Origin: Undaria pinnatifida
Taxonomy: Eukaryota > Sar > Phaeophyceae > Laminariales > Alariaceae
NCBI GenBank assembly: GCA_012845835.1
Contig: JABAKD010000010.1
Coordinates: forward strand, 17,991,204 to 18,055,203
Length of the DNA stretch: 64,000 nt
Direction of reading: 5' to 3'
The notes beneath the pieces are model-generated. The model had not been told where the DNA came from and searched no databases. It worked only from the letters and a program-made list of their open reading frames with translations. Of the stretch, positions 1 through 63,684 are shown piece by piece. The translations under genes and the position numbers were made by a program. Position 1 is the stretch's first letter, and each line of letters begins with the position of its first letter.

Positions 1-296
1 TCTTTGTCGATTTCTTATCATTATTGGCGTTGAGCTATGGGAAGCTCAAGGAGACAGGAAAGGAGAAGGAGTGAGAGCATGGGGCTGGGCTGAGGCTCAC
101 AGAGTTCGCTTCACCCTCCAGCATTGCTGCTGTGCTCTCTTCTGGACCTTTACCTATGGAACGTACAAGGAACGTTTTCCTAGGTGTTCTATATTCTCAT
201 GAGCGCTTAACGCGCTTACTTCTACCTATCCTGCCCAGAGGAGGAACGTTCCATTACCAAGAACGCTTTTGTGGTATAAGCTAGCTAGGTTCTATG
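1..296 (-). repeat. Element 1 3' LTR, partial at window edge
   Basis: This segment matches 12729-13016 with scattered substitutions and a small indel near 230. Position 1 corresponds to about 12729, so roughly 80 bp of this LTR lie outside the window. Both copies end with the same GCTAGCTAG and then diverge. I see no clear polypurine tract next to it, so the internal boundary is approximate. Confidence 0.6.
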
Positions 297-2389: not shown

Positions 2390-4019
2390 GGCTCCCATGC
2401 CCATGGCGTTGAAGGCACTATGATCCGGCGACGGCGTTCCGGGCCGTAGTGTATCGAGCTGGCTGGAGGTCGATCTTGATCGGGCCGGGATCGCCCAGGA
2501 ACCTGATGATGTGGGAACTACCCGGGGAAGGGTCCGGGGGGGTTTGCGAAGAGACGTTCGGTGGCGCGCGGTGAGCGATCTTGCCTAGCCACCAGAGGCC
2601 GTCACGTGCCTTGTATCAGACGTGTGCCCCGGAGGGGAGGGTGGAGTTGCTGAAACTGCGAAGCCAAAGGTCGCGGGGGACCAGGGCGTAGCCGGGGGCG
2701 AGGAAGAGTTGACCTTGAGATCGGGAGAGCTTGCGGTGTACGGGGCCGTTGCGCACCTGGCGGTAGAGGCGGTTGGTCTGCCGGTGTTGTGTCGGCTTTC
2801 CGGACCAGTAGAGTAAGATATGGCACCTGAAGTGTTGGGGGTAGAGCTCGCGTTCCCCCGAGGGGCTGAGGAGTTCGGTTCAGTGGGTCTCGCATAGGAC
2901 GGCGATGACCCCGCCGCGGCCGCGGACGAGTTGGTGGCCGGTGAACTGCTCAACCTCGAGACGCTCTGGTGGTGGTGTGACGTCGTCGAGAATGACGTGG
3001 TAGGGGGGGGACTTAGCAGCGGAAGCTGTGAGGACGTATGTTGTGAGTTCCGCCGGTAGGTGCTTGGGTATGTCGCTGGTGTCGTCGGGTTTGTGGCAGG
3101 GCTTGCATCGTTTGACGGAGACGCGTGGTTTGGAGTCCCGTCCCGGAAGGTCTGAAAGTAGATCGAGGAAGAGCAGCTTGTCTTGTAGGGGGCGATTGTC
3201 GTGGGTGTCGGAGGCGGCAGTCGGGCCTACCGCGAGGATCTTGAACGGTCCGTTCCAGTGCAACGAGAGCTTCGTCTTCAGAACGGTTGCGTCGATGCCC
3301 TTCTTGGCACCCTGACGGATTGTGAAGGCGGAGTTGTAGACCGAGGCCCAGCCGCCAACGGAGAAAGGGGGGAAGGCAAGGAGGGCGGCCATGATGGGTG
3401 CGTTGCGGCGTTGTAGACGCGAGACGGTGAGTCGGTGGAGCTCGCGGACGAGGGAGTAGGCGCGTTGTTGCCGGTCGGTGGCAAGGTTGATGTAGACCAG
3501 GTGGTCGCGATCCAGGCTGTGGTGACCGCCGATGTTTTCGGGTTCGAAGACCGAGAGCGGGAGGCGTGGTAGGCGGCCGATGTGGATCTCGTTGGGCGCC
3601 AGTCCGGTGGCGACGTTGACAGAGTTGTTGTAGGCCGCCGACACGTGCGGCAGTAGCACGTCCCAGTCGGTTTGCTCCTCGTTGCCAACCATGGAGAGCA
3701 TCTGGGCCAGTACATGGTTGACCCGCTCGACGTTGCCGTTGGTGCAGGGGTGACATGCGCTGGTGTTGACCTTGCGGATGCCAACGCGGTCGTAGACGAT
3801 GGTCGCCAGCTTGGAGGTGAATTGTTGACCATTGTCGGAGAGAAGCGTCACTGGGCATCCCCAGAGAGAGATGTACTCGTTGAGCAGGATGTCGGCAGTT
3901 CCGGCGGCCGTGAAGTTCTCTGCAGAGACAGCGAACATGTCGGCCCGGCGGCTGAAACGGTCGGTAAATAACAGGATGTGCACGTTCCCGCGCGGTGTGA
4001 GAGGTAGGGGCTCGACTTA
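2390..4019 (-). pseudogene. Element 1 integrase core, chromodomain and C-terminal extension
   Basis: This is the second half of the integrase plus downstream domains. The DDE triad is visible as Asp in FTDRFSRRADMF, Asp in LLSDNGQQF and Glu in NGNVERVNHVL. After a linker comes the chromodomain (LEVEQFTGHQLVRGRGGV), then an extension containing DGLWWLGKIA and FLGDPGPIK, which matches the intact extension of element 2. Breaks: an in-frame TAA at 4017-4019 replaces the Tyr of the YFGPLP motif seen in element 2; a TGA at about 2877-2879 replaces the Trp of the chromodomain HWAGL motif; another stop lies in the extension near 2620. Integrase would insert the cDNA, and the chromodomain would target chromatin. 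Confidence 0.88.
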
Positions 4020-5830
4020 GTCGACGCTGACGGTGATACCAGGGCCGTTGGGTATAGGTAGGGAGAGGGCCGGCCAGCGAATGGTGTGTCGGGAGGTCTT
4101 CTGCGCCTGGCAGTGAAGGCAGCGACGGATCCACCAGCCGGCGGAGACGTTCATGCCGATCCACCAGTAAAACCGTGCCAGCATGCGAACCGTCCGGGTA
4201 ACTCCAAGGTGTAGGGAGGTGTCGGCGTGGCATGTGTTCAGCACCCAGGGGCGCATCAGCATTGGAACGTAGACGCGGGGGGAATAGGGTGCGGGTGGCG
4301 GGAGGCTGGTCCCGGGTTGGGATGTGGGCGTACGTAGGACCAGGAGGGCAGTTTCTTCGTCAGTGCGGTGGAGTCTGCCTTTGGCGGCGAGAGCGAGGAC
4401 GTCGGAGAGTAATGGGCGCTGGGCCAAGGGGATGAAATCTAAGAGGTCAGCCGGCGGCGGAGAAGGGGAGTCCAACGATAGGAAGCGGATGGCGGCGTAG
4501 CACACGGGCTCTGTGCGTTGTTCGCGCGCCCAGTCTCTGTAGGTGCAGCGCTCAACGCGGGCGAGGAGGTGGGGGTCATTGTTGAGGTCGACAACAGGAT
4601 CCGGGAGCAGAAGCGCCAGTGTTGATGGGGATGTCGGAGAAGTCGTCAAAGGAGGGGCCGGCCTTGATGGGGTTGGTGCGGATGACGCGGGCGGCGTGGG
4701 GGCGGCAGCTGGAGACGTTGTCATCGGAGGAAGCCTTGGCTGGACCCCGGCCGGGGGCGTGGGTTGTCGACGGGTGGATGTAGGTGTTTTGGATACGGTT
4801 GTTTTCGGACGGCGTCCGAACCCATAGTCTGCGGTACGTCGGGGGGTTCCCGCGGCAGCGGCGGTGCGATGGCGGGTCCGTGAAGAGATCAGACCCGAAG
4901 GCGGTGGTTCCGTGGCGCCAATGGTGGACAGCGGGGAGACGACGGGTGGCCTGCAAGCCGAGCCAGAGGGAGCGCCGGTGTTCACGGCGGCATTTTCAGG
5001 GCTGACGAGCGGCCTGGCGGTGGAGTCGCGGGTCGAAATGGGCCCGACGAAGTTGTTGGAGGTGCCGTGGTGCTCTATGCGTGATCCCAGTCGGCGGAAG
5101 TCACCATAGTCGTCGGTGGTGAAGGGAAGAGGTTGGATTGTTGGAATGGGTCTTGAAGGGGGGGATACGAGCCCACCCAAGCCGATGCCCGGTGTAGGCG
5201 GCTCGTCCGGTGCGGAGCCGCAGGGGCGGATGAGGTAGATGCCAACAGTGTCGGGGCCAGTGAGACGGTTACGTCCGGTGCGGTCGGCGTCGGTGGCTGG
5301 TTGTGGTAGGCGTGAGAGGAAGTCGGCGTTGCCGTTGGCCGTACCTTTGCGGTACTTCAGTGTGTAGTTGTAAGCCGACAGGAACTCGAGCCAGCGCCGG
5401 ACGCGAGCATTGTGCTCGCCAACCTTGGCGATGTTCTCGAGTGCCTTGTGGTCCGAATATATGTGGAAACGGGTGGACCACAGATGCCCGCCAAGTCGCT
5501 TGATTGCCCAGACGATGCTGCCAGCCTCGAGGTTGAGGGGTGTCCATGAACGTTCGCAGTCCCGGGTGGCACGACTGACGCAGACGATTGGGCGGACGGA
5601 GCCGTCAGGTTGTTCCTGCTCGAGAGTCGCTCCAAAGCCGTCGATGCTAGCGTCGCAGTAGAGACGGAAAGGGCGGGAGTTGTCGGCGACGGCGTCCCAG
5701 TCGGAGTAGACGAGGATCGGTGGCTCGGTAAGTTCGTGGAGGACGGCTCGGATGGTGGCTTCCATGGCGGGGGTGAAGTCGAAGGTGGCGCCTTGCTTGA
5801 GTAGAGCGTTGATGGGACGAAGACGTCTGG
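4017..5830 (-). pseudogene. Element 1 RNase H, linker and integrase N-terminus
   Basis: The RNase H domain shows its acidic residues in YCDASIDGFGATLEQEQ, LNLEAGSIVWAI, IYSDHKALENIA and GNADFLSRL. RNase H removes RNA from the RNA/cDNA hybrid. A Pro/Ser/Thr-rich linker of about 230 residues follows, then the HHCC zinc module of integrase (CHADTSLHLG with CLHCQAQKT). The frame is open from about 5830 to the stop at 4017 and is shifted relative to the RT frame upstream, so a frameshift lies near 5830-6060. Confidence 0.87.
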
Positions 5831-6060: not shown

Positions 6061-7356
6061 TCAGATGTTGGCGACGTGGTCGGTGGGGTCGGGGTCGAAG
6101 ACGATGATGTCGTCGAGGTACGCGGCGACGCGTTTCAAGCCTTTGATGACCTCGCCAATGACCTTAACGAACCAACTGGGGGGGGCACTGCTGCCTTGCA
6201 GCGTCACAAGCCACTCTAAGAGCCGGTCTGGCGTGCAAAACCCCGTCAAAAGGATGGTATCCTTGTCGATGGTGATTTGGTGGAACGAGGAGACCAAGTC
6301 GAAGAGGGAGAAAATGCGTCCTTTTCCTAAAGAATCGAGGACCTCGTCAACGCGGGGGATGGGAAGCTGTCCGAGGGAGCTGATGGCGTTCAGCTTCTTA
6401 TAGTTGATGGGGATGCGGACATCGCCGTCCTTCTTTGGGATGGCGACCATGGGGCTGGAGTAAGGTGAGGTCGAATGCTAGATCAAGCCGGCGGCCAGGT
6501 ACTGGTCGAGGACGGCGTCGGCCTTTTTGGCAAGGATGGGGTTGATTCTGTAGGGTCGGGAGGTAACTGGTTCGCTGTGCGGAGGTACGGAGATCTTGAA
6601 CGGCATCAATGAGCACGAGCCGAAGTCGGTCTTAGAGGCGGAGAAGACGTCCGGAAACTCGCAGAGGACATCTCCCAGGCTGTCTATCACCGATGGAGAC
6701 CATCCGGAACCGTGGAGGTCGAAGATGATGTCGCGCAGATGCGGCGGCAGACGGTCCCAGAGGTTGAGGAAGCTAGTTCGTTGATCGGCGTCGAGGCGTG
6801 CAAGGAGTTGTGGGCATAGGGCTGTCGGTGGGTCGTGGGGATCGGCTGGTGGGGGGTTTTCGCTGGCCACAGGGATGTTGTCGTGTAGGGCATGTACGCC
6901 CGGCGTAGGCGGAGGGGCTGGGGGGTCCAAGGAGGGGTGCCCAAGGGTGGCTAGTGGTACTTGCATCAGCGGGGATAGGGAGGTTCCGAGGAGGTCGCCT
7001 GGTTCGAGATCGATTGATCCTGACAATGGGATAGTCTGGTGTCCGTCGGAAACGAAAATTACCTTGTCGGTGAGAAGGTCTTCGCGGGGGAGCATGTTGA
7101 CCATGTACTGCCCGGTAAACGCCGGGGCGCCTGGCTGGCGCACGGGGTTGACCGAGGAGGAAAGCGAAATAACTTTCATGCCGGCGAACCGGAGGTGGTA
7201 GACGTCGTCGGTGTATCGGTCGTCGGGAATGAAGGCGGAGGCCCCGTTGGGGTCGTGGTGGTGCAGAGAAAGTGCGCCACGGGTCGGTTGGGGGGGCTGG
7301 TGTGGCAGCTGGGGCTGTCGCGGGAGCGTGGTATACGAGCGTCGCTCGAAGCGCAT
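6061..7356 (-). pseudogene. Element 1 reverse transcriptase with upstream linker
   Basis: The first ~200 residues are a Pro-rich connector after the protease. RT then begins with SRPYRINPILAKKADAV. Recognisable blocks include VAIPKKDGDVRIPINYKKLN, FSLFDLVSSFHQI (first catalytic Asp in FDL) and AAYLDDIIVF (the YxDD box, as YLDD). RT copies the element RNA into cDNA. An in-frame TAG at about 6478-6480 separates the first RT block from the rest. A TGA at 6061-6063 ends the frame just after the palm, so no functional polymerase can be made from this copy. Confidence 0.88.
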
Positions 7357-7450: not shown

Positions 7451-8695
7451 CTAGATGCTTAAGCGGATGGAAACGGAGGTGGAGAGGGGAGTCGAGGTTC
7501 CGAAACCTCCCCATGAACGAGGTGAATTTTGTCGTTCGCACTCATCCGTTGCTGACCGGGACGCCTTCAGTTGTTCCACGGCGGCGGCGGTGATGAACGA
7601 CTGAGGGGAGCCTGTTACGAGCAGCGCCACGAGTTTGCATCGTTTGGCGGCAGTAGGGCCGCTGTGGACTAGCGCTTCGGTCGTGAACGACGCGTCGCCG
7701 ATAGTTAGGATGCCGCTTGTAAGGTACGGTCCATGTTCTGGTATCGTGGGCGCGGTGGTAGCGGGGTATAGGTTGGTTGCGCCGTCGACGGTGGAGATCT
7801 GAACGAAGTGGCAGCTGGGGAAGGCGTCCGGAGTGGAGGGTGGCAGAAGGAGTCCAAGCGGGGTACCCGGCGTTTGTTGAAGGGGGGAGGGGCTTGTCTC
7901 GTGGATGCCATCGGCGGTGGGGAAGACCCGGCTGGAACTATCGCCGGTGGGGAAGACCCGGCTGGAGTCGGTGAGGGCGGGCGTTGGCTCAGCGGAGCAG
8001 GGGAGGAGGGCGCTTGTGGCGTGGAGGCTCGAGCGAAGGCGTTCGCAGACGCCCATAAGTGCCCGGCCTAGCAGGTTCCCACCGCGCCAGCGCGCCCTTT
8101 CGCAGGTGAACGGGTGGTCGGCTCTGTAGCCGATGCCCCAGATGAGGTCGTACGGGCTGGCCTCAGCGATGTGCTTTTCGCCAGTTGCCTCGAGCGCTCG
8201 TTGTAGGTCCGGGTTCTGGCTAAACTTGCAGAAGTTGGTGTTGAGGACGATATCGTAGCGGTGTTGCTCCCACTACTCCTGGTCGAAGCCGGACACGGTG
8301 CGTCTAAGAGATATTTTGGCGACGGGGTCAGGGGTGGTTCGGATGCGAAGCTCTGTCGCCGTGTCACCGAAGAGCGCAGTCTTCTGTGCCATCATCATCT
8401 GTTCGGCGCAGTTGTACGTGACGCCCTCGTACTCGATGTCGCACAAATACCACTGTGAGAAGGCGGACGAGGAGTTCCAGAAAAAATGGAAAGAATCCGG
8501 GGGGTCCGCGGTGTCATGTGCTAGCGAGGGCGAGTCGTCGGACGGGTGTTGCGGGGGTGGGGGTCGGCGATTGTTGGTGATGTCACCGTGTGGCGTTGTC
8601 GGGGGTAGAGTCAGGTCCGATCGGGCGGTGCTGACTTGAACGCCCAAGGTCGCGGGGAAATTGCTCGCCAAAGCCGAGGTACTGGGAGGGTCCAC
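7451..8695 (-). pseudogene. Element 1 NADAR domain fused to retropepsin
   Basis: From about 8510 to 8040 the translation matches the NADAR/YbiA (DUF1768) family across its full length. The blocks are FFWNSSSAFSQWY, TYNCAEQMMMAQKTALFGD, SLRRTVSGFDQE, CKFSQNPDLQRALEATGEK, IAEASPYDLIWGIGYR and GGNLLGRALMGV. One in-frame TAG at about 8264-8266, just before WEQHRYDIV, is its only break. NADAR proteins act on ADP-ribose-type N-glycosidic bonds, and characterised members remove ADP-ribose from guanine in DNA. A retropepsin follows at about 7540-7760, where TGSPQSFI is present but the catalytic Asp is replaced by Val (LLVTGS). The same domain order occurs in element 2, so the fusion belongs to the element family and is not a chance insertion. 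Confidence 0.85.
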
Positions 8696-8699
8696 GCGG

Positions 8700-9550
8700 T
8701 GGCGCGTACGCTGGGCGGGGATACCCTGAGATGTCCTGTCTTCAGGCGTTTGGAGAGCAGGGCTGTACTCTCTAGGGCATGCAGATCATGTGGCCCGAGT
8801 ACACGCAATGCGTGAAGCCGGCGAGGATGACGGAGCAGGGTGCTCAGAGCATATCCTGGTCGACTGTGATCGCGAGTCTTTCGTCTGTAGGACGGGGCTG
8901 TCCCTCGAGCTCAGGGGCAGTGGTGCTGTCAACACCGTGGCAGCGAATGGGGATCCGTCGTTCGCGGGCCCAACGTTGCCACTGAAAAGGCGCACGTCCT
9001 GTGACGAGCGGGTGAGCAGTGGGCAATCTGGGGCCGAGGCGGGCTCAGGGGGCGACGGTCCGGTAGGCGGAACAGCCGTTTCGTGTGAACCGGAACCGCT
9101 GGTAGTCGTAATCGTCGAGACTTCGCCCAGGTTAGCAATGTCTGGAATCTCAGCGATAGTCGGCAGGTAGCACTGCACATCGCGGGAAGGCGTCGAGTGG
9201 AGCATCCCAGTAGGGCTCGACGTCTTGGCCTCCTCCCGCCTACACCTCAAGGCAATCACTGGAACAAGAGCATCAGTGCTTGCACAAGTGGTTGGAGATT
9301 GGGCTGGGATAGGGGGGGTGGGTAGGGGGGCAGGGGCAGGGAGGCGTGACGCGCGTGGTGTACTCGGGCGTCTTGAGACCCGGTGTTCGCAGTAAGTGCT
9401 GTTGGCGGAGATGCTGCAGTTGCTCCACCACCGGCTCTTCAGTTGGTGCGAAAGGTGCCAGGTAGTCTTTGGTTGGGGTTGGTGGCGTTTTTGTTGCCGA
9501 TCCGCATGTTCGACGGGGCGGCGGCTGCGGGGGCATTGGTGGCCGGGTTG
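8700..9550 (-). other. Element 1 linker between Gag zinc knuckle and NADAR
   Basis: The minus strand keeps an open, Pro/Ser/Thr-rich frame through 8786-9259 with no recognisable fold. The corresponding part of element 2 is filled by ~230 bp tandem repeats. It probably encodes a disordered spacer between Gag and the NADAR-protease segment. Confidence 0.45.
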
Positions 9551-9557
9551 TGTACCG

Positions 9558-12007
9558 TCAGGGCTGTCGACTGCGTTGCGGCTGCGGCGCGCCGTTGTTG
9601 AAATTGCTGCCCTTGCGACTGTCGGTTGCCATTGTCGTAGGAGCGGCCGTTGTTGTGGCGTCCGTTGTTGGAGCGTCCGTTGTTGCCCCGGTGTTGGTTG
9701 GAGTAGTCGTGGTTGTGGCGTTTGTTGTTGTTGGCGCCCCGGTTGTTGTTGTGGTAAGTGCCCCGACGGTTGTCGTTACGATGGGTGTAGCGGTTGGAGT
9801 TTCAGTCGACGTTATGCTCCTACTGGCCCCGGCGGTAAGAACGCATCCGTTGTTGCCATTGACGTAGGCGTGGCCACCATCGTTTAGCTGGCCAAGCGCA
9901 GGGTTGAGAATGCCGGATATGTTGAGGAAGTCCTGAGGGCAGGTCTTCATGCTGTGATCCGTACTGTTACAGTTAAGGCAGTGTCCGCCGTGAGCACGTA
10001 GAGCGTGAACGCGGGCCGAGCTCGTGAGGAGCGAGATGAGCAGCAGAGAGTCCTGCGTACTAAACGTTGTCGTGACCATCTACACCTCCTCGTAGTGTCG
10101 GAGAGACCAGTCGGATTCGTCCTCGCAGAATGGGTCGCGGTCGGCCTCGGCTATGTTTATGATCAACGGGTTGGACGCGGAACCCATTGCGCGAGTGCCG
10201 GGGCCACGCGTGTTGGTGTGTCGCGCAGGGGGTGGTGGCGAAGAGGAGTACGTGACATGCCCGCCTGAAGAGGTCACATGGAATCCTTGGCAGTTGATAG
10301 CCAGCGTCTTGTTCGTCGCCAGTACCTCGAAAGCCGCCCACATGTCTGCAACCGTGGCGAACGGCTGCGGGACCGTCATGAGGTGCCCAGGGTAGAGATT
10401 TGGCATCAGTGGCACGTACTGACTGCTGGTGACCCCGCGTACGATCTCGACGACCATATTGTCACTGGGCTTACAAATCTGTTCTGTGCCCTGTGCGATC
10501 GAGACACGCTCCTTGAACGCTCGCAGGGACGTGGAGAAGTCTGTTGAGCTCCGTACGCCGAAGGAGTGCAGCTGTTGGAAGGCGCGTCCCTGGTCGCCGT
10601 CGTCGACGTGGTTGGTTAGGAGCTGCAGTAGCTGCTTGAAAGCCGACGGTCCGGTTCCGTCGGTGCCGAGTTCCTGACAACTTGGGCTAAGAAATCGTCG
10701 ATGAGGCGGGTTAGGGGAGACGCCATGACCTGCGGATACCCGAGAGCCTTTCGGAAGCATTAATGGAGACTTCTGTGCCATCCCTTAACCCAGGGGGGTG
10801 TGTCGAATAATTGTTTTCCAGACTCGTCGCTGATCGTGAGGATCTTCCTCATCGCCAGTTTGACGCTACCTAGGAACATGCCCAGGTAGACGGCGGCATC
10901 GCTGTTGGCCGGGAAGGGTAGGCGTACGAGTGGTGTCAACTTCCGCATGTCCACCACCTCGTACTGGCGCGTAACGGCATGATGTTCGTCGTCCATCATA
11001 GGTCCCGATCGGGCTGGCGTTGTCCTGGTGGACGGGGTGGGGACCGTCGCCGGCGTGGGCGTGTTCGTGGTGGGCTGGGGCGGCGTCGCCGCCGTGGGTG
11101 CGGCCGTCGTGGGGGGGGGGAATGAGGCGTGCAGTGGCGTCGGGACGGTACTCTGTCTGGTTCCACACGTAGCCGCGGCCGGAGTTGTTGTGGAAAGTGA
11201 CGAAGGGCGAGTACCAGGGTGTTGGTGGCTCTGATGAGCTCGTCGGATGCGCTAGTGGTGCCGGCACGGGTTTGGACGAACGCGACCGATGGGTCGCTAT
11301 CGGGGGCGAATAAACCCCACAGGCGGTGCGCCGCCGATGAGACATCAGAGAAAGCTGCTCCGCGTGTTCTCTGCATGCAGCGGAGTGTATGGTCGCAGAA
11401 ATCGCAATCGATAGCCTCGCGCGGTAAAACCGTCGGTCGTGAGGATGCCAAGGGGGTGGGGGGGGGCAAGGGCTGGGCAGGCGGTGGCACCTGGTAGGTT
11501 GTGGTAACCGGCTGGGCCGGCGGCGGCAGCTGGAAAGTAGTGGCTCCAGGCGTCACGGCGGGCGCATGGGTTGGCGGTACCTGCAGTGGCTGTGTACGCA
11601 AGGTCACAGGCACTGAGGATTGCGGGGGGGGGGGGGAGCGGCTGCGGTTGGACCGGAGTGGCCGCGGTCGCAGCTGTCGCCGTATATGACGGCGAGAAGG
11701 GGTTTGTGGAAAGGGTTGGGGATGGGGGAAGCCTAAGCAAGAGTTCGGCGCTCTCCTTAAGCTGGAGAAACAGTTGTTTGTGGTGGGCTTGCAGGGCTGC
11801 GCGGCGTTCGCGAAAGACCACGCGGTGGCCCTGGGCGTTCCCCGGGTCCGAGATTGGGCTTGCAGGATCCTGCGATGTGGTTTCAGGTTTTACGGTGGGC
11901 TCCCGCCCGGCACTGGAGGTGCTTGCTCCTAGGGGAGGGACGCCCGGAGTGGCCTTGGGGAGCGTCAAATCGCTCAGAATGGATTCCACGTTCGGGATGT
12001 TGTCCAT
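9558..12007 (-). pseudogene. Element 1 gag
   Basis: I place the start at the ATG at 12007 (MDNIPNVESILSDL). The N-terminal part has a basic, Gln-rich helical stretch (RERRAALQAHHKQLFLQLKE) followed by Pro/Thr-rich sequence. The capsid-like part lies at about 10300-10680 and includes FKQLLQLLTNHVDDGDQGRA and FQQLHSFGV; element 2 has the same block at 42990-43100. A CX2CX4HX4C zinc knuckle (CLNCNSTDHSMKTC) lies near 9944-9985 and is followed by LNPALGQLNDGG, also shared. At least three frame changes break it. Gag would form the particle that packages the element RNA. Confidence 0.8.
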
Positions 12008-12648: not shown

Positions 12649-13016
12649 TGTAGAAGAGTCGTGGTACCGGAAGGTGAGAGGGAAGGGACGCAGGGGTATT
12701 AGCTTCGCTTGGAGACAGCACCGGTTTTTCTCTGTCGGTTTCTTGTTATTATTGGCGTTGAGCTATGGGAAGCTTAAGGAGACAGGAAAGGAGAAGGATT
12801 GAGAGCATGGGGGTGGAGTGAGGCTCACAGAATTCGCTTCACCCTCCAGCATTGCTGCTGTGCTCTCTTCTGGACCTTTACCTATGGAACGTACAAGGAA
12901 CGTTTTCCTAGGTGTTCTATATTCTCATGAGCGCGTAACGCGCTTACTTCTACCTACTTGTCCAGAGGAGGAACGCTCCATTACCGAGAACGCTTTTGTG
13001 GTATATGCTAGCTAGA
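12649..13016 (-). repeat. Element 1 5' LTR
   Basis: Its inner end is set by the primer-binding site at 12631-12646 and the terminal CA. Its outer part, 12729-13016, matches the repeat at the left edge of the window. The outer end has no clean TG and directly abuts LINE sequence at 13017, so it may be truncated. Confidence 0.6.
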
Positions 13017-17545: not shown

Positions 17546-51919
<34,374 letters not shown>

Positions 51920-54559: not shown

Positions 54560-55295
54560 GGTCGGTCGTTAAACTTTCGTTTTTTGGACTTTTGGACTGT
54601 ACAGACTTTCAAAGCTGCAACTGCTGCTAGACTCTTCGAGCAGCTGCCGCAGCTGCTGGGCCATTCGAGCAGCTGACGCAGCTGCTGGGCCATTCGAATG
54701 GCTGTCCAAGAACTTCAAAACGTCAGCCATGTTTTGTGATTTCAATGCTGGTGGTGGTGATTAAGGCTGCAAATTTTGCATCAGCTGCTGCTGCTGCCGT
54801 TCGTTTTTTCCCCCCTATCCGCTGCAGCTCACGACGTCAGCAGATTCCGTGTGGTACTTGGTGCTGTTTTTTTACCGCTATACCACAGCGCTGTCGCCAA
54901 AGCTTCCAGCGCCACCGCCAGTACCCCCGCGCCGCCGCGGCAGCCGCTGATGCTGCTGCTGCTGCTGCTGCTACTGCTGTTGGCGTCTATACTGCGTAAG
55001 TTTGTAAAGGTAAAAAGTCGGCTGTCTGTGGTCATGACCTCGCCTAGCCTACCTTCCTTGCTATATACTCGCTCCATGGCGGAGTGCCTATGCGTGGGGA
55101 GCATGGGATGGAGGGAGCTGGCCGTGATAATGACACTATTAATAGTGCTATCCGTGACTGGGCACCTTAGGGGAACGCGCTCAAGTGCTGGCTGCGGAGG
55201 TCGCCGTTGCTGCAGCAACGTGTTGCGCGCATTCGCATCGTTTATTTCGGATTGCTCAACATAGCTGCAGCTTCAAGTATTTATATACACCAAGA
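54560..55295. other. Region with CTG-rich repeats, no supported gene
   Basis: AGCAGCTGCCGCAGCTGCTGGGCCATTCG-type units are repeated two to three times at 54635-54705, and a (CTG)n run is at 54950-54978. A plus-strand frame at 54776-55264 (162 codons) has a poly-Leu stretch and a possible membrane segment (ELAVIMTLLIVLSVTG). I cannot tell it from chance and do not call it. Confidence 0.4.
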
Positions 55296-55725
55296 TGTGG
55301 AAGACAGGGTCGTAGATACCTATCGTAGATCGCGTACACGCATGCGCGAGAGGACACGTCACCGGTCAGGCAATACACGATCCCGCGTCGCGAATGGCGT
55401 CACCCGTCATAGACGGCGTTGACCCGTCCCCGGAAGGTCAGCCACCGAAAGATGATCCCGCCGCATGACGAAGGGCATAAGCCCACCGTCACTCTAGCTC
55501 TAGCTTTAGCATCTCCTCGCTACATATAAGAAAGAAAGGTTTACAGCGTGCGTCCGCTGTGAGGACGATCGTCAAGGGACCTCAGCACCGCGACGTCCTC
55601 TCCGCTTCAACTTCAGCTCTGCGACGCCCTCTCCGCTTCGACTTCCGCTCTGCGACGAGTACCAGACCTCCGGGACCACCCTCTTCACTTCGACACCGGG
55701 ACCCCGTGAGAGACCAGGTTCCATA
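55296..55725 (+). repeat. Element 3 5' LTR
   Basis: 430 bp, starting TGTGG and ending CCATA (not the usual CA). A TATA-like CATATAAG lies near 55525. Short direct repeats (CTCTCCGCTTC, CTCTGCGACG) occur at 55595-55660. Confidence 0.93.
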
Positions 55726-55726
55726 G

Positions 55727-55745
55727 TGGTGACCACCGTCGGAAC
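55727..55745 (+). other. Element 3 primer-binding site
   Basis: TGGTGACCACCGTCGGAAC starts one base after the LTR. It begins with TGG, complementary to a tRNA CCA end, and differs from the site of elements 1 and 2. Confidence 0.6.
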
Positions 55746-55804
55746 AACAAAACCTATATAAAAACCTATATAAAGTTTGCCGTCGGAAAAGAAGAAAAAA
55801 CAAC

Positions 55805-57516
55805 ATGCCACGCTCAGGAGCTCGCTCCAAGAAGAGCCGCGGGAAGGCCCGCAAGGCATCGCCCTCTCCGGAGGAACCGACTCCCGCACTGGCGGGGAAC
55901 TCCTTTGCGGCCCTCGCACCCACCGACCAGGGCGGACCGGCCGAGGATGACGAAGAGCAGCCGGACGCTGCAGATGAGGCTGGTGCGCTCAGCACGACGC
56001 CTGCATCAGCTGGGGAAGCCGTTGAGGAGGGCTCGAGCCTGGCAGAGGACATCCTCGCCGCGCCAAGCGCTCTCCCCGGCCACGACCCCGTCCGCGTCGA
56101 GACCGCCGCGTACCTCAGGAAGTGCATGCTCGACGGCACCACGCCGCCGGCGTGGGTCTTGGAGATGGTGCTGCCTGACAGCCGGAAGCCTGTGAGTGGG
56201 CCTTCCGACAAGAAGGTAGACGAGGTGAGAGGAGTACCACAGCCACAGCAAAACCTCGACGTTGTTTTTGAACGCGTGCAGCACCCAACGACTCTTGCCA
56301 CGCCTATACAACAGCAGTCGAGTAGCTCTGACAGCAGCTGTACCCCTCCCCCTGACCACTCTCAACCAGACCCCCCGACAGCACGTAACACCTCTGCTGT
56401 AGAAGCAATGCCCACAAACCCCCTGACAGCACGTAACACCTATGCTGTAGAAGCACCTCAAACAGCACGTACAACCTCTGCTGTAGCACCCCCGAGCGCA
56501 AACCATAACCACAACGAAGGCCACAAATTTTCGATCAAAACATCGGATATGCCCCCTTCACTCAAGTTGCACGGGTTACCAACTGAAGATGTGCCCGAAA
56601 TCATGGCGCTCTTTCACGCTCACATCCGTTTGCACGCCCCTGACGGCTCCCTGGATTCGGTTGTCGACCGCCACGCCGTAAGATACCTAGCATACTTGGT
56701 GACCGACGGCGCAGCTAGCACCATGAATCTAAGCCAGTGTGGGACGTTAGAGTGGCGCATAGGCAAAGAGCTTGCCCAACTGAACACGGAAGCTGTAGAC
56801 GTCAGAGCACCACGCAACTGGAAGGAGTGGGCGGATGCTTTCACAAACCTGTTAGCCCCGTGAACCGCATCGTCCTCCTCGCTCGCACCGTCTCTACCCT
56901 AAAGCAAGGCCGTAGTGAATCCGTCGACTCGTACGGACTGCGTGTAACTCAAGCATACGCGCGCCTCCTAGCCGAGGCAAAACGAACCACTCCCGTCAAC
57001 GTCTCGCCATACCAACATGCATGGCAAACATCGCTCATGGCATCCTTCGAAGCCGGTCTAGTTCCGCACGTACGTCTAAAACTTATTCGTGAAGACCCCT
57101 CCCTCACGTACCAAGCCTCGCGGACTCGCGCCAAGAAACATGAGACCAAAGCTTTACGCGCGGCCCCCACCCCCTCCCCGACCACGTATGCTTCGGCCGT
57201 CACTGGCACATCTCCTGGACCCAACCGACAGTTGATAACTTCGATGGCCAAACTCGAGAAAGCCATCGCATCAAATCTGACGGCGGCGCGAGGCCGAGAA
57301 CGAAGAGTGACCTTCGAGCCAGCAACATATGGCTGGTCCGGCAAGCGAGGCAGGTCGCCGAGTAGCGACGCGAGTAAGAGTAGAAAGGCAAAAGTAGCGT
57401 CGGGCGACGAGTGCGACTACCCGATGTGTCGCCACCGCAGCTCGCACTCGCGCCCGGATTGCAGGCTGGCCAGAGCGCACGAGCGCGACGGCATAGTAGT
57501 CACGAAAAAACCGTGA
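55805..57516 (+). pseudogene. Element 3 gag
   Basis: ATG at 55805 begins a basic N-terminus (MPRSGARSKKSRGKARK) and an acidic, Pro/Thr-rich region with repeated TARNTSAVEA-like motifs. A capsid-like domain follows (LHGLPTEDVPEIMALFHAHI, then WADAFTNLL). The first frame stops at 56863. The protein continues in another frame from about 56860 with NRIVLLARTVSTLKQGRSES, typical of retrotransposon Gag, to 57516. One frameshift near 56855 therefore splits Gag. Near its end CDYPMCRHRSSHSRPDC has an unusual CX4CX5HX4C spacing in place of CX2CX4HX4C. Confidence 0.85.
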
Positions 57517-57992
57517 GGGGGCCCGCGCCGGTTACCTCAAACCGGTTCGGGGAGTAGGCATACTAGGATCACCAAACCCGCGGTAGAAACGATAGCGCGT
57601 TCAGCTAGCGTAGCCTTGGAATGTTCCGGTAGACCTAGTAGTAAGAGGAGGGATAAGTGTGGCCGAACAAAGAGCTCCACCCCTCTGGCGAGTACCCATG
57701 CGAAACAAGTACATGCAGACAACCAGTCGAATACTGTAACAGACTTGGAAAATAAGCAGCAGGTCCGAGTGTTCTAGCAGTACCGCGTGGAGTTGGACCA
57801 GCCGTAGAAACAGCACGCAGAGTCGAGAAGAGTAGTTAGCGTCAGAATGATACGTTTTCACCTTCCATGGTACCACAAGCGTTGTATGTTTCTGCTGCGT
57901 CCCGCAAACTAAATGAGAAAATTTAAAATCAAGTTTTATTATCATGCAACGCTAACCGGGAAACGCACTTTGATGCTTCCCACGCGTCTGCC
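57517..57992 (+). other. Spacer between element 3 gag and pol
   Basis: Stops occur in all plus-strand frames and I recognise no domain. It may be decayed coding sequence linking Gag and protease. Confidence 0.4.
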
Positions 57993-59141
57993 ATGAGTGG
58001 GTATCCCAGATATCCCACAGCTCTCAACTCTACGTCAAAGCGCGTACGAGTAAACGCCAGAGTTAATGATTATCCGGCGCACAATGTCACGATTGACACT
58101 GCGACCGATGTACCATGCATATCTGTTCACTTTGTACAGACACATCCCACAATGAAAGACACTCAGATTTTTGCAGTGCTCCCGGGAGCGATCAACCTCA
58201 GCAGTGCTGATGGGTCGCCTCTCAAAATTTTAGGATATGTTCGCTTTCAACTTTTACTCAGAGATATTACCCTACCAGTCGAAGCGCTCGTATTGCCCTC
58301 TTTAGGGCCAGACATTATGCTACTCGATAACACCATCATGGGCGCCTTCGGAGGTGTCTTCGACTGGAGTACAGATAAATTGTCATTCAAAACCTCTCAA
58401 GTGACGATTAAAGCATCTCATCGTAGAGTAGACTTTACAGCGCGCCCCGAAAACACTGCGACAGCTCAGTGCTCCGTGGTCACAGTTAACACTGATGTAG
58501 AGTCGGTGCCAGTCTTGTTGCGACACAAATGCTGTATCCCCCCCCAGAGTGAGATGGCAGTACAAGTAGAGTCAGCGACAGCACCCACAGAAACCACTGC
58601 TGCACTCATTGAACCACTTATCGTCACGTTTGAAGACATTGAATCGTCCGCCGTACCTGAAGCTTTTCAAAATATGATAGTTGCTCGTACAGTGAGTTAC
58701 TGGTCGGCCGCTGATAAAACAGCAGTAGTCCAGATCGCGAACCCGTCCCACCAATACGTATACTTGAAACGCAACACCTTACTGGGTCACATTGCGCCCG
58801 TATCGGTAGCCCTGAACAAAACGACCAGTGCAATTCAAACAGACAGCAAGACAACGGAATCCATGCGTAACGAGCTTCGCGCAGCACTTACTCGAGCATA
58901 TGATCAAACCACGTTTACACCGGCCGAATGCGAACAAGTACTGACTCTATGCACGAAATATCGCAGCGTTTTTTCCTTGTCACCTCAAGAGCTAGGTAAA
59001 CATACCCTGGCCGAAGCAAAGTTTCCTCTTGAACCAGGAACACGGCCTGTAAATAGAACCCCGTACCGTGCGAGCCCACGCGTACAGGAGACTATCGACA
59101 AGTGCGTGAATCAGATAGAACGAGAGGGAATCATTGAATAG
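57993..59141 (+). pseudogene. Element 3 protease and RT start
   Basis: The retropepsin has VTIDTATDVPCIS, where the usual DTG or DSG is DTA, and LGPDIMLLDNTIMGAF as its second conserved block. The frame continues to the first RT segment (FPLEPGTRPVNRTPYRASPR and IEREGIIE) and stops at TAG 59139-59141, at the point where Ty3/gypsy proteins usually continue with a Pro-Ser-rich link to SPWxSP. Confidence 0.88.
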
Positions 59142-59730
59142 CGCCCTAGTCCCTGGGGCTCCGCAGTAGTAAGTATTGTCGCAAAATCAGACGGCACTCC
59201 ACGGTTCTGCGTAGATCACAGGTCGACCACAAATAAGAATCTGATTAAAAAATCGTGGTCTATGCCTAACTTAGAAAACCACCTTGACACGGTCGGAGGA
59301 GCGCGTTATATAACTGTGTGTGTGACGTACAAAATGCTTACCAGTAGCAGAGAGCGAACAAGATAAAACTGCTTCTGTGACGCAGAACGAAAAGTGGGTT
59401 TTCAAACGCCTACCCTTCGGTATAGCTAACGCGCCGTTTCTGTTCTCGCGAATTATGTCACTAGCTTTTGCACATTTTGGTCCAAAAAGTGGGCTCTTGG
59501 TTTATATGGACGACTGTATATGTTGTTCATCTACCTGGACAGGCCACTTACAGCTACTAGAAAACATGTTCACAGCCTTGCAAGCGGCCGGCCTCACCCT
59601 CAAACCATCGAAAGTACAGTTTGGCCCCCGAGAAGTTAAAAACGTGGGACACATACTGACGGCCGACGGTATTCGGATCGGTGAGGATCGCGTAAAAGCT
59701 ATAGTTGACTTGCCGACGCCTAAAACATAA
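59142..59730 (+). pseudogene. Element 3 reverse transcriptase palm
   Basis: After the stop, SPWGSAVVSIVAKSDGTPRF and CVDHRSTTNKN are the next RT blocks. The segment that should carry the first catalytic Asp reads VCVTYKM, so this Asp is lost. A stop at about 59362-59364 and a frameshift follow. From 59377 the frame has FKRLPFGIANAPFLFSRIM and LVYMDDCICCS (YxDD box, as YMDD), then the thumb (LTLKPSKVQFG, VGHILTADGI). Confidence 0.9.
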
Positions 59731-59735
59731 AGGAG

Positions 59736-60407
59736 TTGCGGTCAGTGCTAGGGATGGTCAACTTTGTACGCAAGTTTATACCTAACTTAGCCGGTATCAT
59801 AGCACCCCTGGTAGCCCTCACGAAAAAAGAGGCCGCCAAAGAAGTCGCTAAACGTTGGAGACCAGAACACGATCAGGCGTACGCAACGGTGAAACATTTG
59901 CTCACTCAGGCGCCCGTACTTCAATTTCCCGATTTTTCCAAAGACTTTGCGATACACGTTGACGCTTCAGAAGCAGGTGCAGGTGCATTCCTCGCCCAAA
60001 AGAAAGGCGGTGACCTCAATATAATCGCATACTTTAGTCAACGCTTCAACGACAGCCAGCGCCACTACTCTGCTATGCTCAAATAATGTTATGCTGTGGT
60101 CTTGGCCATCCAGCACTGGCGACCTTATTTATGAGGACGACGTTTTGGGTGTGTGACAGATCACGCGGCCCTGCGATACCTATACTCAATGCAAGATACA
60201 TCGAACATGTTAACACGCTGGGCAATGGCATTACAGTCTTTTGACTTCACCGTCCAACACAAACCAGGCAAACTGCACGTCGTACATGACACGCTTTCAC
60301 GAATGTTTGCGTTCGAGCACCAGCAAGAAGTAGCCGTGCCGTCCCTCGCGCCCATTTGCCGCAATGTACCAGATGACCCCAAGCTACAAGCAGCCCGTGT
60401 CCCCTGA
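59736..60407 (+). pseudogene. Element 3 RNase H
   Basis: LGMVNFVRKFIPNLAGIIAP is the RT-RNase H connection. IHVDASEAGAGAFLAQ carries the first catalytic Asp. A TAA at about 60084-60086 falls in the YSAMLK-CYAVVLAI block, where the catalytic Glu usually lies. VTDHAALRYLYS and VVHDTLSRM follow in another frame; the Asp of the usual ADALSR block survives in HDTLSR. Confidence 0.88.
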
Positions 60408-60476
60408 CCATATCAGATCTCCGCCGACAAACTGGCTAACCTAATACCATTACGCAGCGATGAAGAGCTCTTTAGT

Positions 60477-62031
60477 GTGAAATCAGTATTCGTGAGCGCG
60501 ACAAATGTTTTCATGCCCGTCGATCAAGAAAAACTCCACTCAGCACAACCAGTAGAGTACGGACGGTACATCGATTACATACAGCACGCAGACGCACCAT
60601 TACCAGAGAAAGAAACGGAAACAACCATGTCTTACTATCCAGTGCAGGAAGGGCTGTTGTTTAAATCGTACTTCACGGGATATCTTCGAAAACGAAGCAC
60701 CTTCCGCGATCAACTCGAAGTACCGGAGGCCCTTTTTGGATTAATTCTGCACGCCTACCTCAATCACGTTCTATCCGGAGGACACCTCGCATCTCGCCCG
60801 ACTTATGAAAAAATCCGCCAGAAATATTGGTGGCCCACCATCAGCCGCGACGTACGAGAGTGGTGCGAAAAATGTCAAGCTTGTCAACGACGAAAAACAG
60901 CACACAACAGACCCAAGCTCCCGACAGGCCATTTACCTGTCGAGCGGCCATTTCAACGAATATTGGTTGACTTAGTAGAGTACAAATTGGTATTAACTTT
61001 ACGTTCTATCCGGAGGACACCTCGCATCTCGCCCCACTCATGAAAAAATCCGCCAGAAATATTGGTGGCCCACCATCAGCCGCGACGTACAAGAGTGGTG
61101 CGAAAAATGTCTAGCTTGTCAACGACGAAAAACAGCACACAACAGACCCAAGCTCCCGACAGGCCATTTACCTGTCGAGCGGCCATTTCAACGAATATTG
61201 GTTGACTTAGTAGAGTACAAATCGGTATTAACTTTAGCCGCAGGGATCGAATGCAAATACGTTCTCTCCATGATGGACCTCCTGACGAGGTTTGCGGTAC
61301 TGCTGCCGGTACGTAATAAAACGGCCGAAACAGTAGCCAATGCCATAATCGAGAGAATAATCAGCATTTTCGGCCCACCAGAAACCTTGCATAGTGACCA
61401 AGGCCCCGAATTCGAGGATAAGGTGATATACCAGCTGCAACAAATACTCGGATACAAAAAGACCCGCACAACGCCGTACCGGCCGCAGGGTAATTCGGTG
61501 TCCGAACGGGTGCACTCAACGATGCACAGCATACTAGCAATGCACAGTGCAATCGATCAAAGCAACTGGGCCACTTTCTTACCGTTTGTGCAGCTAGCGC
61601 ACAACACTAGCTTTAGTGCAACGATGCATGAGACACCATTCTTCTTAATGTTCGGACGACAACCCCGACTCCCAGTCGATATTATCCTCGGTATTCCTCA
61701 TGTAGGAAGAACAGCAGACACCGAGGAACTCGCACAAAACACACGGGACAATTTGCAAATCGCTTTCGAGCTCGCACGCCGAAAGTTAACCGAGCGTGCA
61801 GACAAACAGGCAGAACAAAATAGCAAACTTAAACCGTACCCGGTGTTCAAACCTGGACAGGAAGTACTCGTGTACAGACCTTACCAGGATTCGGATGGGC
61901 CCAACCCAAAAAAACTGCTATTACCATGGCGAGGACCGTATGTCGTCTGCTCACAATTATCACCAGTGGTGTATAGAGTACGACTCACGAACGACACCCG
62001 AGAAGTGTCAGTCCACCTAGCCCATATATAG
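60477..62031 (+). pseudogene. Element 3 integrase with a 235 bp internal duplication
   Basis: The HHCC module is seen as HAYLNHVLSGGHLASRPTYE with CEKCQACQRRK. The segment 60766-61000 is repeated as 61001-61235, which doubles the zinc-module region and shifts the frame (235 is not a multiple of three). The core then reads DDE: Asp in SMMDLLTRFA, Asp in LHSDQGPEF, Glu in GNSVSERVHSTM. The C-terminal part ends with LPWRGPYVVCSQLSPVVYRV, the GPY/F-like module typical of gypsy integrases. Stop at 62029-62031. Confidence 0.92.
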
Positions 62032-62118
62032 CCCTACAATCAACGGGAAACACCACCCGCACCTCAATTTGAGAAGCTGGCGGAATTTTTTTTAGGGGAG
62101 CCCATTCCCCTACCCGGG

Positions 62119-62325
62119 TTGGACCATCCAGACGCGGCTCAATCCAAAATTGAGTCCTACTTCGTAGACAGGGTAGTAGATCATAAAAGGGGACCTGGCA
62201 GACCAAGCCCCCACAACTACAAGTACCGCCTAAGACTCCGAGGATACGGCCCTGAATCCGACCTCGAGTATCGCGCGGACGAAGTGCCCCAATGTCACGA
62301 ATTGATCGCCGCATACCGAGCCTAA
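62119..62325 (+). pseudogene. Element 3 chromodomain
   Basis: KIESYFVDRVVDHKRGPGRP, YKYRLRLRGYGPESDLEYRA and LIAAYRA follow the chromodomain pattern (hydrophobic core, LRGYGPE in place of WKGYxxE, terminal helix). The Trp residues of the aromatic cage are partly missing. It is in a different frame from integrase, or separated from it by the stop at 62031. Confidence 0.85.
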
Positions 62326-63252: not shown

Positions 63253-63684
63253 TGTGGAAGACAGGGTCGTAGATACCTATCATAGATCGCGTACACGCAT
63301 GCGCGAGAGGACACGTCACCGGTCAGGCAATACACGATCCCGGGTCGCGAACGGCGTCACCCGTCATAGACGGCGTTGACCCGTCCCCGGAGGGTCAGCC
63401 ACAGAAAGATGATCCCGCCGCATGACGAAGGGCATAAGCCCACCGTCACTCTAGCTCTAGCTTTAGCATCTCCTTTTGCTGCATATAAGAAAAAAAGGTT
63501 TACAGCGTGCGTCCGCTGTGAGGACGATCGTCAAGGGACCTCAGCACCGCGACGTCCTCTCCGCTTCGACTTCAGCTCTGCGACGCCCTCTCCGCTTCGA
63601 CTTCCGCTCTGCGACGAGTACCAGACCTCCGGGACCACCCTCTCCACTTCGACACCGGGACCCCGTGAGAGACCAGGTTCCATA
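63253..63684 (+). repeat. Element 3 3' LTR
   Basis: 432 bp, about 2 percent different from the 5' LTR by eye, which argues for a fairly recent but not immediate insertion. Confidence 0.93.

What the first reader, a model, noticed from the sequence alone, without database searches (positions are those of the whole stretch)
8035..8510. A NADAR (YbiA/DUF1768) domain built into a Ty3/gypsy retrotransposon
Seen: all ordered conserved NADAR blocks lie in element 1 between the Gag zinc knuckle and retropepsin, in one frame with the protease. Family knowledge: NADAR enzymes cleave ADP-ribose N-glycosidic bonds, and some remove ADP-ribose from guanine in DNA, reversing DarT-type modification. Inference: the element may remove ADP-ribosylation from its nucleic acid, or act on NAD/ADP-ribose signalling of a host defence, as an accessory counter-defence. 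I know of no standard description of gypsy elements carrying NADAR.
Basis: partly seen in the sequence, partly recalled or inferred. Interest (0 to 1): 0.88.

Follow-up and report, generated by a model that had tools for sequence, protein, structure and literature searches.

The report
NADAR enzyme domain inside kelp retrotransposons
A worn-out copy of a seaweed jumping gene carries a domain from a family of enzymes that strip ADP-ribose off guanine; such elements were reported from another brown alga in 2025, and here the domain looks to be under selection in several element lineages of one kelp, but its function is untested.

Summary
Window 8033-8485 (minus strand) encodes a full NADAR domain (PF08719, half-matches E 1.1e-11 and 9.1e-25) between a Gag zinc knuckle and a retropepsin of a Ty3/gypsy element with LTRs. 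This copy is dead: a stop lies inside NADAR, the protease motif lacks its Asp, and the frames are broken. The genome (Undaria pinnatifida, judged from scaffold lengths) gave 150 scored NADAR matches; 20 of 20 fetched 10-kb loci show NADAR-PR-RT-IN in order. The idea is not new: Dinatale et al. 2025 (PMC12477816) described NADAR at the N-terminus of Pol in an Ectocarpus Gypsy lineage. Added here: four divergent versions in one kelp; 59 of 65 sampled copies (nearly all high-scoring) keep the E/K/E triad; between lineages dN/dS is 0.16-0.31 in NADAR against 0.58-0.59 in the neighbouring linker; an in-frame UGA between Gag and Pol in 17 of 18 copies with the junction motif; grouping of one lineage with single NADAR proteins of brown algae; and one NADAR-PR-RT-IN protein from a clearly different gypsy element. 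Most likely role (inferred): a Gag-Pol-borne hydrolase removing ADP-ribose from guanine in the element's RNA or cDNA. No activity was tested.

The parts
12698..13015 (-). 5' LTR of element 1 (element lies on the minus strand)
   Evidence: 94.4% identical over 319 bp to a copy that starts 31 bases left of the window and ends at 288
1..288 (-). 3' LTR of element 1 (31 more bases lie left of the window)
   Evidence: with the left flank from L029
9939..9980 (-). Gag CCHC zinc knuckle CLNCNSTDHSMKTC of element 1
   Evidence: read in ORF 9558-10079; homologous to zinc knuckles of copies L009 and L011
9439..9441 (-). TGA at the Gag/Pol junction, after ...PGTFRTN
   Evidence: TGA at this place in 17 of 18 copies in which the motif was found
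8033..8485 (-). NADAR domain of element 1, with an in-frame TAG at 8270-8272
   Evidence: Pfam PF08719
7460..7690 (-). retropepsin-like protease region of element 1; catalytic Asp missing (LLVTGSPQSF); low end approximate
6070..6630 (-). reverse transcriptase of element 1
   Evidence: Pfam RVT_1 E 1.7e-14; high end
5370..5774 (-). RNase H of element 1
   Evidence: Pfam RT_RNaseH E 1.9e-26, RT_RNaseH_2 E 3.3e-17
3747..4268 (-). integrase of element 1 (H2C2 zinc finger and rve core, in two ORFs)
   Evidence: Pfam Integrase_H2C2 E 2.5e-13, rve E 7.1e-7, the latter just below its cut-off
38349..38618 (+). left LTR of element 2 (TGTTAA...TTAACA); preceded by GTAT
   Evidence: identical (0 of 270) to 51027-51296
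51027..51296 (+). right LTR of element 2; followed by GTAT, a likely 4-bp target-site duplication
44064..44066 (+). TGA at the Gag/Pol junction of element 2
45933..46430 (+). broken NADAR domain of element 2
   Evidence: profile match of 125.3 bits with stops inside
48068..50215 (+). integrase ORF of element 2 with a C-terminal stretch of unproven chromo/Tudor type
   Evidence: Pfam H2C2 and rve; no Pfam match for the C-terminal stretch; single-sequence model of low confidence, pLDDT 43

Best explanation
This is a decayed member of a Ty3/gypsy lineage of brown algae whose Pol begins with a NADAR (YbiA-type) domain. SHOWN: element order LTR - Gag with zinc knuckle - UGA - linker - NADAR - protease - RT - RNase H - integrase - LTR; other copies in the kelp genome with frames open through NADAR and Pol; retained ADP-ribose-contacting residues; fewer amino-acid changes than expected in NADAR between lineages. 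INFERRED: the UGA is sometimes read through, so that NADAR is made with Pol at low dose and enters the particle as part of Gag-Pol; the protease may free it; inside the particle it hydrolyses the N-glycosidic bond between ADP-ribose and guanine on the element's RNA (or its cDNA), removing a block to reverse transcription or integration placed there by a host or competitor ADP-ribosyltransferase.
For: Domain and order. Open frames: 20 of 150 matches lie in frames of 2,302-2,473 codons. Residues: mapped onto the P. nicotianae NADAR-ADP-ribose structure (PMC11543638 section 12; chain 8bau), E43, K50 and E125 are kept in 59 of 65 distinct copies and all 13 listed positions match one of three intact patterns in 52 of 65; 43 of 43 relatives at about 57-62% identity, which I take as non-algal, keep the triad. 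Selection between lineages: dN/dS L009-L024 NADAR 0.16, linker 0.59, RT 0.03; L011-L026 NADAR 0.31, linker 0.58, RT 0.11. Gag-UGA-Pol junction in 17 of 18 copies with the motif, lineages A, B and L026. Published activity: the NADARs tested remove guanosine-ADP-ribose from DNA (PMC11125620 passages) and from RNA (PMC11833690 passages). Parallel: NADAR lies in polyproteins of several RNA viruses (PMC9503650 passages; Foldseek matches).
Against: No activity, expression or substrate data. E. coli C7 NADAR is inactive on uracil-ADP-ribose RNA (PMC13036486) and on phosphate-end ADP-ribose RNA (PMC11833690), so the substrate class is narrow. No DarT match in this genome; no writer of guanine-ADP-ribose is known here. 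NADAR evolves faster than RT: 47% identity between lineages A and B against 81% for RT. Within close pairs NADAR dN/dS is 0.29-1.51, and in the A-type pairs it is hardly below the linker's (L009-L014: 0.46 both), so constraint shows only between lineages. The 64 copies other than element 2 come from the best-scoring matches, so retained residues are over-represented. One copy with the junction motif, L014, has CGA instead of TGA. RNA downstream of the UGA folds no better than shuffles (z -0.85, 0.24, -0.77), so read-through rests on position and conservation alone.
Confidence: 0.4

Rival explanations
1. The domain acts on small molecules (free ADP-ribose derivatives, cyclic ADP-ribose, NAD-derived signals, or reactive riboflavin intermediates as E. 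coli YbiA does) and thereby dampens a host alarm signal.
For: E. coli YbiA acts on riboflavin intermediates (PMC11543638 passages); phage NADARs are argued to target diffusible ADP-ribose derivatives (PMC9503650 passages). The lineage has the YbiA-type Glu at the position of E125.
Against: A domain locked into Gag-Pol at low dose is poorly placed to clear a cell-wide signal (inference); RNA-virus polyprotein NADARs are argued to act on macromolecules.
Confidence: 0.2
2. NADAR works as a reader: it binds ADP-ribose on chromatin, proteins or nucleic acid and steers Pol or the pre-integration complex, with catalysis unimportant.
For: Ectocarpus Gypsy elements carry chromatin-reader domains (PMC12477816 section 5); pyrophosphate- and adenine-contacting residues are kept.
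Against: The catalytic E43 and E125 are kept as well as the binding residues (triad in 59 of 65).
Confidence: 0.15
3. RNA-end or tRNA-primer processing in the retrotransposon RNA, in concert with a Tpt1/KptA-type enzyme (the RNA-processing idea of Dinatale et al., in a specific form of mine).
For: The host genome has a Tpt1/KptA gene (three exon-like matches on C48); the authors of PMC12477816 suggest RNA processing.
Against: NADARs did not act on ADP-ribosylated RNA phosphate ends (PMC11833690).
Confidence: 0.1
4. A passenger: the captured domain has no role for the element.
For: Copies with a broken NADAR exist (7 of 65 have a stop inside), and element 2 looks like a recent insertion (identical LTRs) although NADAR is broken and PR and RT were not found. 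In close A-type pairs NADAR dN/dS is no lower than 0.37 and near the linker's.
Against: dN/dS 0.16-0.31 between lineages against 0.58-0.59 in the adjoining linker; the domain aligns over its whole length while the linker aligns in part and at 21-27% identity (B, P0121). Element 2 lacks Pol functions too, so it probably moved in trans and says nothing about need.
Confidence: 0.12

Closest known systems
NADAR-bearing Gypsy lineage of Ectocarpus (Gypsy-12_Ec32; Dinatale et al. 2025, PMC12477816)
   Different: Another brown alga, of another order (order recalled); several divergent versions in one genome; dN/dS, active-site census, Gag-UGA-Pol junction and trees are given here (the paper's supplements were not open to me, so some may be there). 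Sequence-level clade membership could not be tested, since the Ectocarpus consensus sequences were not at hand; a C-terminal chromodomain was not shown here.
Tx1 LINEs of Crassostrea gigas with a NADAR-like ORF1 domain (PMC12477816)
   Same: Retrotransposon with a YbiA-type NADAR.
   Different: Non-LTR element; domain in ORF1; described there as divergent. Not examined here.
NADAR domains in polyproteins of nidoviruses and other + strand RNA viruses (PMC9503650)
   Same: NADAR fused into a replication polyprotein of an RNA-based element; BFVD structure matches to long viral polyproteins.
   Different: RNA viruses without reverse transcription; only about 12-20% identity in the structural alignments to long polyproteins.
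DarT1-NADAR toxin-antitoxin (BC4488 family, PMC11543638)
   Same: Superfamily and ADP-ribose-binding residues.
   Different: YbiA-type Glu, not Asp, at the position of E125; no ADP-ribosyltransferase match in the Pol; no DarT match in the genome.
Single NADAR proteins of brown algae (P0045 Pylaiella, P0063 and P0094 Ectocarpus; Esi0017_0056, PMC7922944)
   Same: P0045, P0063 and P0094 are about 58-62% identical to lineage A in the domain and group with A and P0121 apart from the bacterial-type rows (98/96; 93/95.9). Esi0017_0056 was not compared here.
   Different: Short proteins (227-248 aa) with NADAR as the only Pfam domain given for them, and an N-terminal Cys/His stretch.

Membership tests
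NADAR superfamily (PF08719) | Full-length profile match above the curated cut-off | tested here: met
   154.9 bits over profile 1-163, cut-off 35.1; halves 45.6 and 88.2 bits
NADAR superfamily (PF08719) | ADP-ribose-contacting and catalytic residues (E43, K50, E125 in 8bau numbering) | tested here: met
   Present in element 1 and in 59 of 65 distinct copies; element 1 departs, as aligned, at positions 75 and 78 and has a stop
NADAR superfamily (PF08719) | YbiA fold | tested here: met
   Model of P0001 (91% identical to lineage A over 89% of the domain) matches 8bau (E 1.2e-10, TM 0.47/0.60) and YbiA 2b3w (E 1.3e-5), the only two PDB matches with E <= 0.001; mean pLDDT 74.6, ends disordered. 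The window copy itself was not modelled.
NADAR superfamily (PF08719) | Guanine-ADP-ribose hydrolysis | not testable with these tools
   Needs an enzyme assay
Ty3/gypsy (Metaviridae) | Order PR-RT-RNase H-integrase after Gag | tested here: met
   Element 1, and PR-RT-IN in 20 of 20 fetched loci (RH in 19, zinc knuckle in 18)
Ty3/gypsy (Metaviridae) | Flanking LTRs | tested here: met
   Element 1: 94.4% over 319 bp; element 2: identical over 270 bp
Ty3/gypsy (Metaviridae) | Target-site duplication | tested here: inconclusive
   GTAT on both sides of element 2; none recognised at element 1
[quoted passage not shown]
   aa 408-557 (A, L009) and 319-469 (B, L011) of the frame behind the TGA
Ectocarpus NADAR-Gypsy lineage (Gypsy-12_Ec32) | C-terminal chromodomain | tested here: inconclusive
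   No Pfam match; single-sequence model pLDDT 43
Ectocarpus NADAR-Gypsy lineage (Gypsy-12_Ec32) | Same clade in a Pol/RT tree | not testable with these tools
DarT1-NADAR toxin-antitoxin | Asp in place of Glu at the position of E125, and a DarT partner | tested here: not met
   Glu; no DarT match in the genome

The most novel reading that the evidence does not exclude
Brown algae, or a competitor of these elements, mark retroelement RNA or cDNA with ADP-ribose on guanine, and a widespread family of Ty3/gypsy elements carries its own eraser inside Gag-Pol; the same solution arose again in a distant gypsy element (P0122) and in animal LINEs. That would make nucleic-acid ADP-ribosylation an anti-transposon defence of eukaryotes.
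Probability: 0.18. Interest if true: 0.88.

Novelty: new member of a known kind. Interest (0 to 1): 0.52.

Why it matters
Retrotransposons seldom carry captured enzymes beyond their own replication set (general knowledge). A constrained ADP-ribose-hydrolase domain with its active site kept inside Gag-Pol, in several lineages of a kelp and in at least one sequence of a second gypsy group, makes a concrete question testable: is retroelement nucleic acid ADP-ribosylated in eukaryotes, and is that a defence? It also offers eukaryotic NADARs with a defined place of action.

Tried and rejected
Chance match: rejected (E 6.6e-43 for the whole domain). Bacterial contamination or mis-assembly: rejected, since the same order is found in 20 of 20 loci on many contigs and long open frames run through NADAR. 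Two separate captures by lineages A and B: suggested by the free tree (one group in 0 of 200 bootstrap trees) and by A being nearer to bacterial-type NADARs (57-62%) than to B (47%), but one origin is not rejected (p-AU 0.12 for A+B; 0.43 with the algal single proteins and P0121), and NADAR diverges about as fast as, or a little faster than, the protease in these pairs, so I do not claim two captures. Separate origin in P0122: favoured by the tree, not significant (p-AU 0.09 and 0.18). Direct transfer from bacteria into the element: not favoured over capture of an algal NADAR gene, because A groups with algal single proteins and P0121 (98/96; 93/95.9, not starred); domestication of an element domain by the host is open too. 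A strong stem after the UGA: none seen. My first junction scan printed only copies with a stop near the motif and so hid L014; one search repeated it without that demand. Viral contigs: three scans, no relative. PDB by sequence with the window copy: 0 matches; with a bacterial relative: 8bau and 2b3w, and two matches with E 0.59 and 0.8 that I take as chance. A single-gene NADAR of the kelp itself could not be picked out, since the 150 scored matches are filled by element copies; three further matches proved to be broken A-type copies. PARP genes and the share of related RT copies without NADAR stayed unanswered.

Full report
WHAT IS IN THE WINDOW. On the minus strand a Ty3/gypsy element (element 1) runs from an LTR at 12698-13015 to an LTR that begins 31 bases left of the window and ends at 288 (94.4% identical over 319 bp). 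Between them lie, in order, a Gag zinc knuckle (9939-9980), a TGA at the Gag/Pol junction (9439-9441), NADAR (8033-8485), a retropepsin-like stretch, RT, RNase H and integrase. Pfam NADAR matches both halves of the domain, E 1.1e-11 and 9.1e-25, and 154.9 bits when read as one stretch. The copy is dead: a stop codon at 8270-8272 lies in NADAR, the protease motif LLVTGSPQSF lacks its Asp, and Gag and Pol are spread over several frames. A second element of the same kind lies on the plus strand between LTRs at 38349-38618 and 51027-51296, which are identical over 270 bp and have GTAT on their outer sides. Its NADAR (45933-46430) is broken, and protease and RT were not found, so it seems to be a recent insertion moved in trans (inference; gene conversion of the LTRs is not excluded).

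HOST. The window is C2:17991204-18055203 of a 511,146,479-bp genome of 68 contigs. Contig C34 is 16,510,065 bp long, exactly the scaffold N50 of the Undaria pinnatifida assembly of 511,280,173 bp in 114 scaffolds (PMC7058681, passages read). I take the host to be Undaria pinnatifida; this is an inference from lengths.

OTHER COPIES. A NADAR search of the genome scored 150 matches out of 1,454 first-look candidates, 150 of 150 over the cut-off; the number is a cap, not a count of copies. Twenty of the 150 lie in frames of 2,302-2,473 codons. I fetched 20 loci of 10 kb, picked from 176.7 down to 113 bits, all without a stop inside the match and many with long frames, and 40 loci of 1 kb, mostly high-scoring; eight 3.4-kb loci came, five of them repeats of the others. 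In 20 of 20 of the 10-kb loci NADAR is followed by PR, RT and IN in order and orientation, RH in 19, and a zinc knuckle lies upstream in 18. Four divergent versions were seen: A (L009, with a 95% variant L014), B (L011; element 1 is of this type, 88% in NADAR), L024 (69% to A) and L026 (49% to B, 46% to A). Element 2 is A-like (integrase 100%, NADAR 59%).

GAG-UGA-POL. In 8 of the 20 10-kb loci a Gag frame (up to 1,019 codons in A, 938 in B, stop to stop) ends with one TGA and the Pol frame (up to 2,473 / 2,371 codons) goes on in the same frame. A search for the junction motif without demand for a stop found it in 16 of the 20 loci and in both window elements; 17 of these 18 have TGA right behind it, in lineages A, B and L026, and one (L014) has CGA; L010, L024, L025 and L027 lack the motif. 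NADAR lies about 320-410 residues behind it. I infer stop-codon read-through, which would tie NADAR to Pol dose and packaging. The codons after the TGA differ (CAG, AGA, CCT), and the next 110 bases fold no better than shuffles, so the way of read-through is unknown.

IS NADAR KEPT WORKING? I mapped 13 positions that contact ADP-ribose in the P. nicotianae structure (PMC11543638 section 12) through chain 8bau. Of 65 distinct copies, 52 carry one of three intact patterns at all 13, and 59 keep E43, K50 and E125; the six that do not are L015, L023, L027 (partial), L052, L054 and element 2; seven of 65 have a stop inside the aligned domain, element 1 among them. Sixty-four of the 65 come from the best-scoring matches, which biases this upward. 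Between A and B 11 of 13 positions agree against 47% overall (hypergeometric p 0.005; the positions are conserved in the wider superfamily, so this is a weak test). dN/dS by a simple Nei-Gojobori script on 13 pairs: L009-L024 NADAR 0.16, PR 0.11, RT 0.03, RH 0.08, linker before NADAR 0.59; L011-L026 NADAR 0.31, PR 0.22, RT 0.11, RH 0.15, linker 0.58; L009-L011 NADAR 0.18 and RH 0.09 with dS near saturation, PR and RT saturated; L009-L026 NADAR saturated. dS is about 1 or more in these pairs and L024 and L026 are themselves damaged, so the ratios are rough. In the nine close pairs NADAR is at 0.29-1.51, as expected where copies decay, and in the four A-type ones (0.37-0.46) it is hardly below the linker (0.46-0.58). 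So NADAR looks constrained over the long run, less than RT and far more than the linker beside it; within recent copies this is not shown.

ORIGIN. A search with the A domain gave 1,091 proteins, of which I saw the best 120. Many of the best (up to 91%) are unnamed ENA proteins. The named ones are Pylaiella littoralis and two Ectocarpus (60-61%) and three Nannocystis bacteria (59-61%), among unnamed metagenome proteins at about 57-62%. The brown-algal single proteins (P0045, P0063, P0094; P0055 of an unnamed eukaryote goes with them) group with A and P0121 apart from the bacterial-type rows (98/96; 93/95.9, not starred); the order inside that group is open. B falls elsewhere in the free tree, but one clade of A and B is not rejected (p-AU 0.12), nor one of A, B, algal proteins and P0121 (0.43). 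P0121 is a 1,680-aa Pol with NADAR and RT 67% identical to A; P0122 is a 1,415-aa protein with NADAR directly before PR-RT-RH-IN and RT only 36% identical to A. P0122 rests on one 6.8-kb contig of unknown host; a common origin of its NADAR with the others is not rejected (p-AU 0.09, 0.18). Searches for long NADAR proteins gave these two and three others for which no Pfam RT was listed (P0123-P0125).

WHAT IS KNOWN. Dinatale et al. 2025 (PMC12477816; [quoted passage not shown] In the held library 'NADAR domain' with 'gypsy' and 'YbiA' with 'retrotransposon' each return that paper alone; 'NADAR' with 'retrotransposon' returned 104 papers, of which I saw 20, most of them by title on other matters; 'NADAR', 'LINE', 'transposable element' returned 4; 'DUF1768' with 'reverse transcriptase' returned 2, one of them on a stress-induced Ectocarpus DUF1768 protein (PMC7922944, passages). 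I saw no report for Undaria in these or in 'NADAR' with 'brown alga' (80 papers, 20 listed); papers outside the library and supplements were not searched. The finding is thus a new member of a known kind, with new detail.

FUNCTION. Published NADARs remove ADP-ribose from guanosine in DNA (PMC11125620, passages) and in RNA, where they are the only hydrolase family of those tested to do so (PMC11833690, passages). They do not act on RNA phosphate ends, and the NADARs tried did not act on uracil-ADP-ribose (PMC13036486, passages). NADAR also sits in polyproteins of several + strand RNA viruses, where it is argued to act on macromolecules (PMC9503650, passages). The simplest fit is an eraser of guanine-ADP-ribose on the element's RNA or cDNA. 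What would write that mark is unknown: no DarT was found in the genome, a Tpt1/KptA gene was, and the PARP search did not complete. Confidence that this is a NADAR-bearing Ty3/gypsy element is about 0.98; that it works as proposed, 0.4.

Noticed in passing
window 9439-9441 and 44064-44066; L009-L028: A TGA separates Gag from an in-frame Pol (17 of 18 copies with the junction motif; L014 has CGA): possible opal read-through in brown-algal Gypsy elements.
   Followed up: partly
window 38349-51296: Element 2 looks like a recent insertion (LTRs identical over 270 bp, GTAT on both sides) although NADAR is broken and PR and RT were not found; its kind may be moved in trans.
   Followed up: partly
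L073, L075 and window 45933-46430: A-type copies that by eye share a frame break near the C-terminal end of NADAR; a number of further matches also end near query residue 213, perhaps one defective subfamily that multiplied.
   Followed up: partly
window 40559-41293: Tandem array of an 84-bp unit in the leader upstream of Gag, shared with other A-type copies.
   Followed up: partly
window 45118-45925: Repeats of about 230 bp in the Pol linker just before NADAR of element 2.
   Followed up: no
window 55294-63684: A third LTR-like pair (434 bp, 97.2%) around integrase ORFs (H2C2, rve); five ORFs scanned, no NADAR match, apparently another LTR element.
   Followed up: partly
window 33410-33740, 18810-19030, 60766-61236: Further tandem arrays (6-bp, short-period and 235-bp units).
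   Followed up: no
P0125 (1503 aa): Protein with NADAR, many zinc-finger-like Cys stretches and a C-terminal part that by eye resembles a DIRS-like reverse transcriptase; no Pfam match but NADAR.
   Followed up: no
P0045, P0063, P0094: Brown-algal single NADAR proteins have an N-terminal Cys/His stretch (...PGCSxPC...YC...HA) that by eye recalls stretches of P0125.
   Followed up: no
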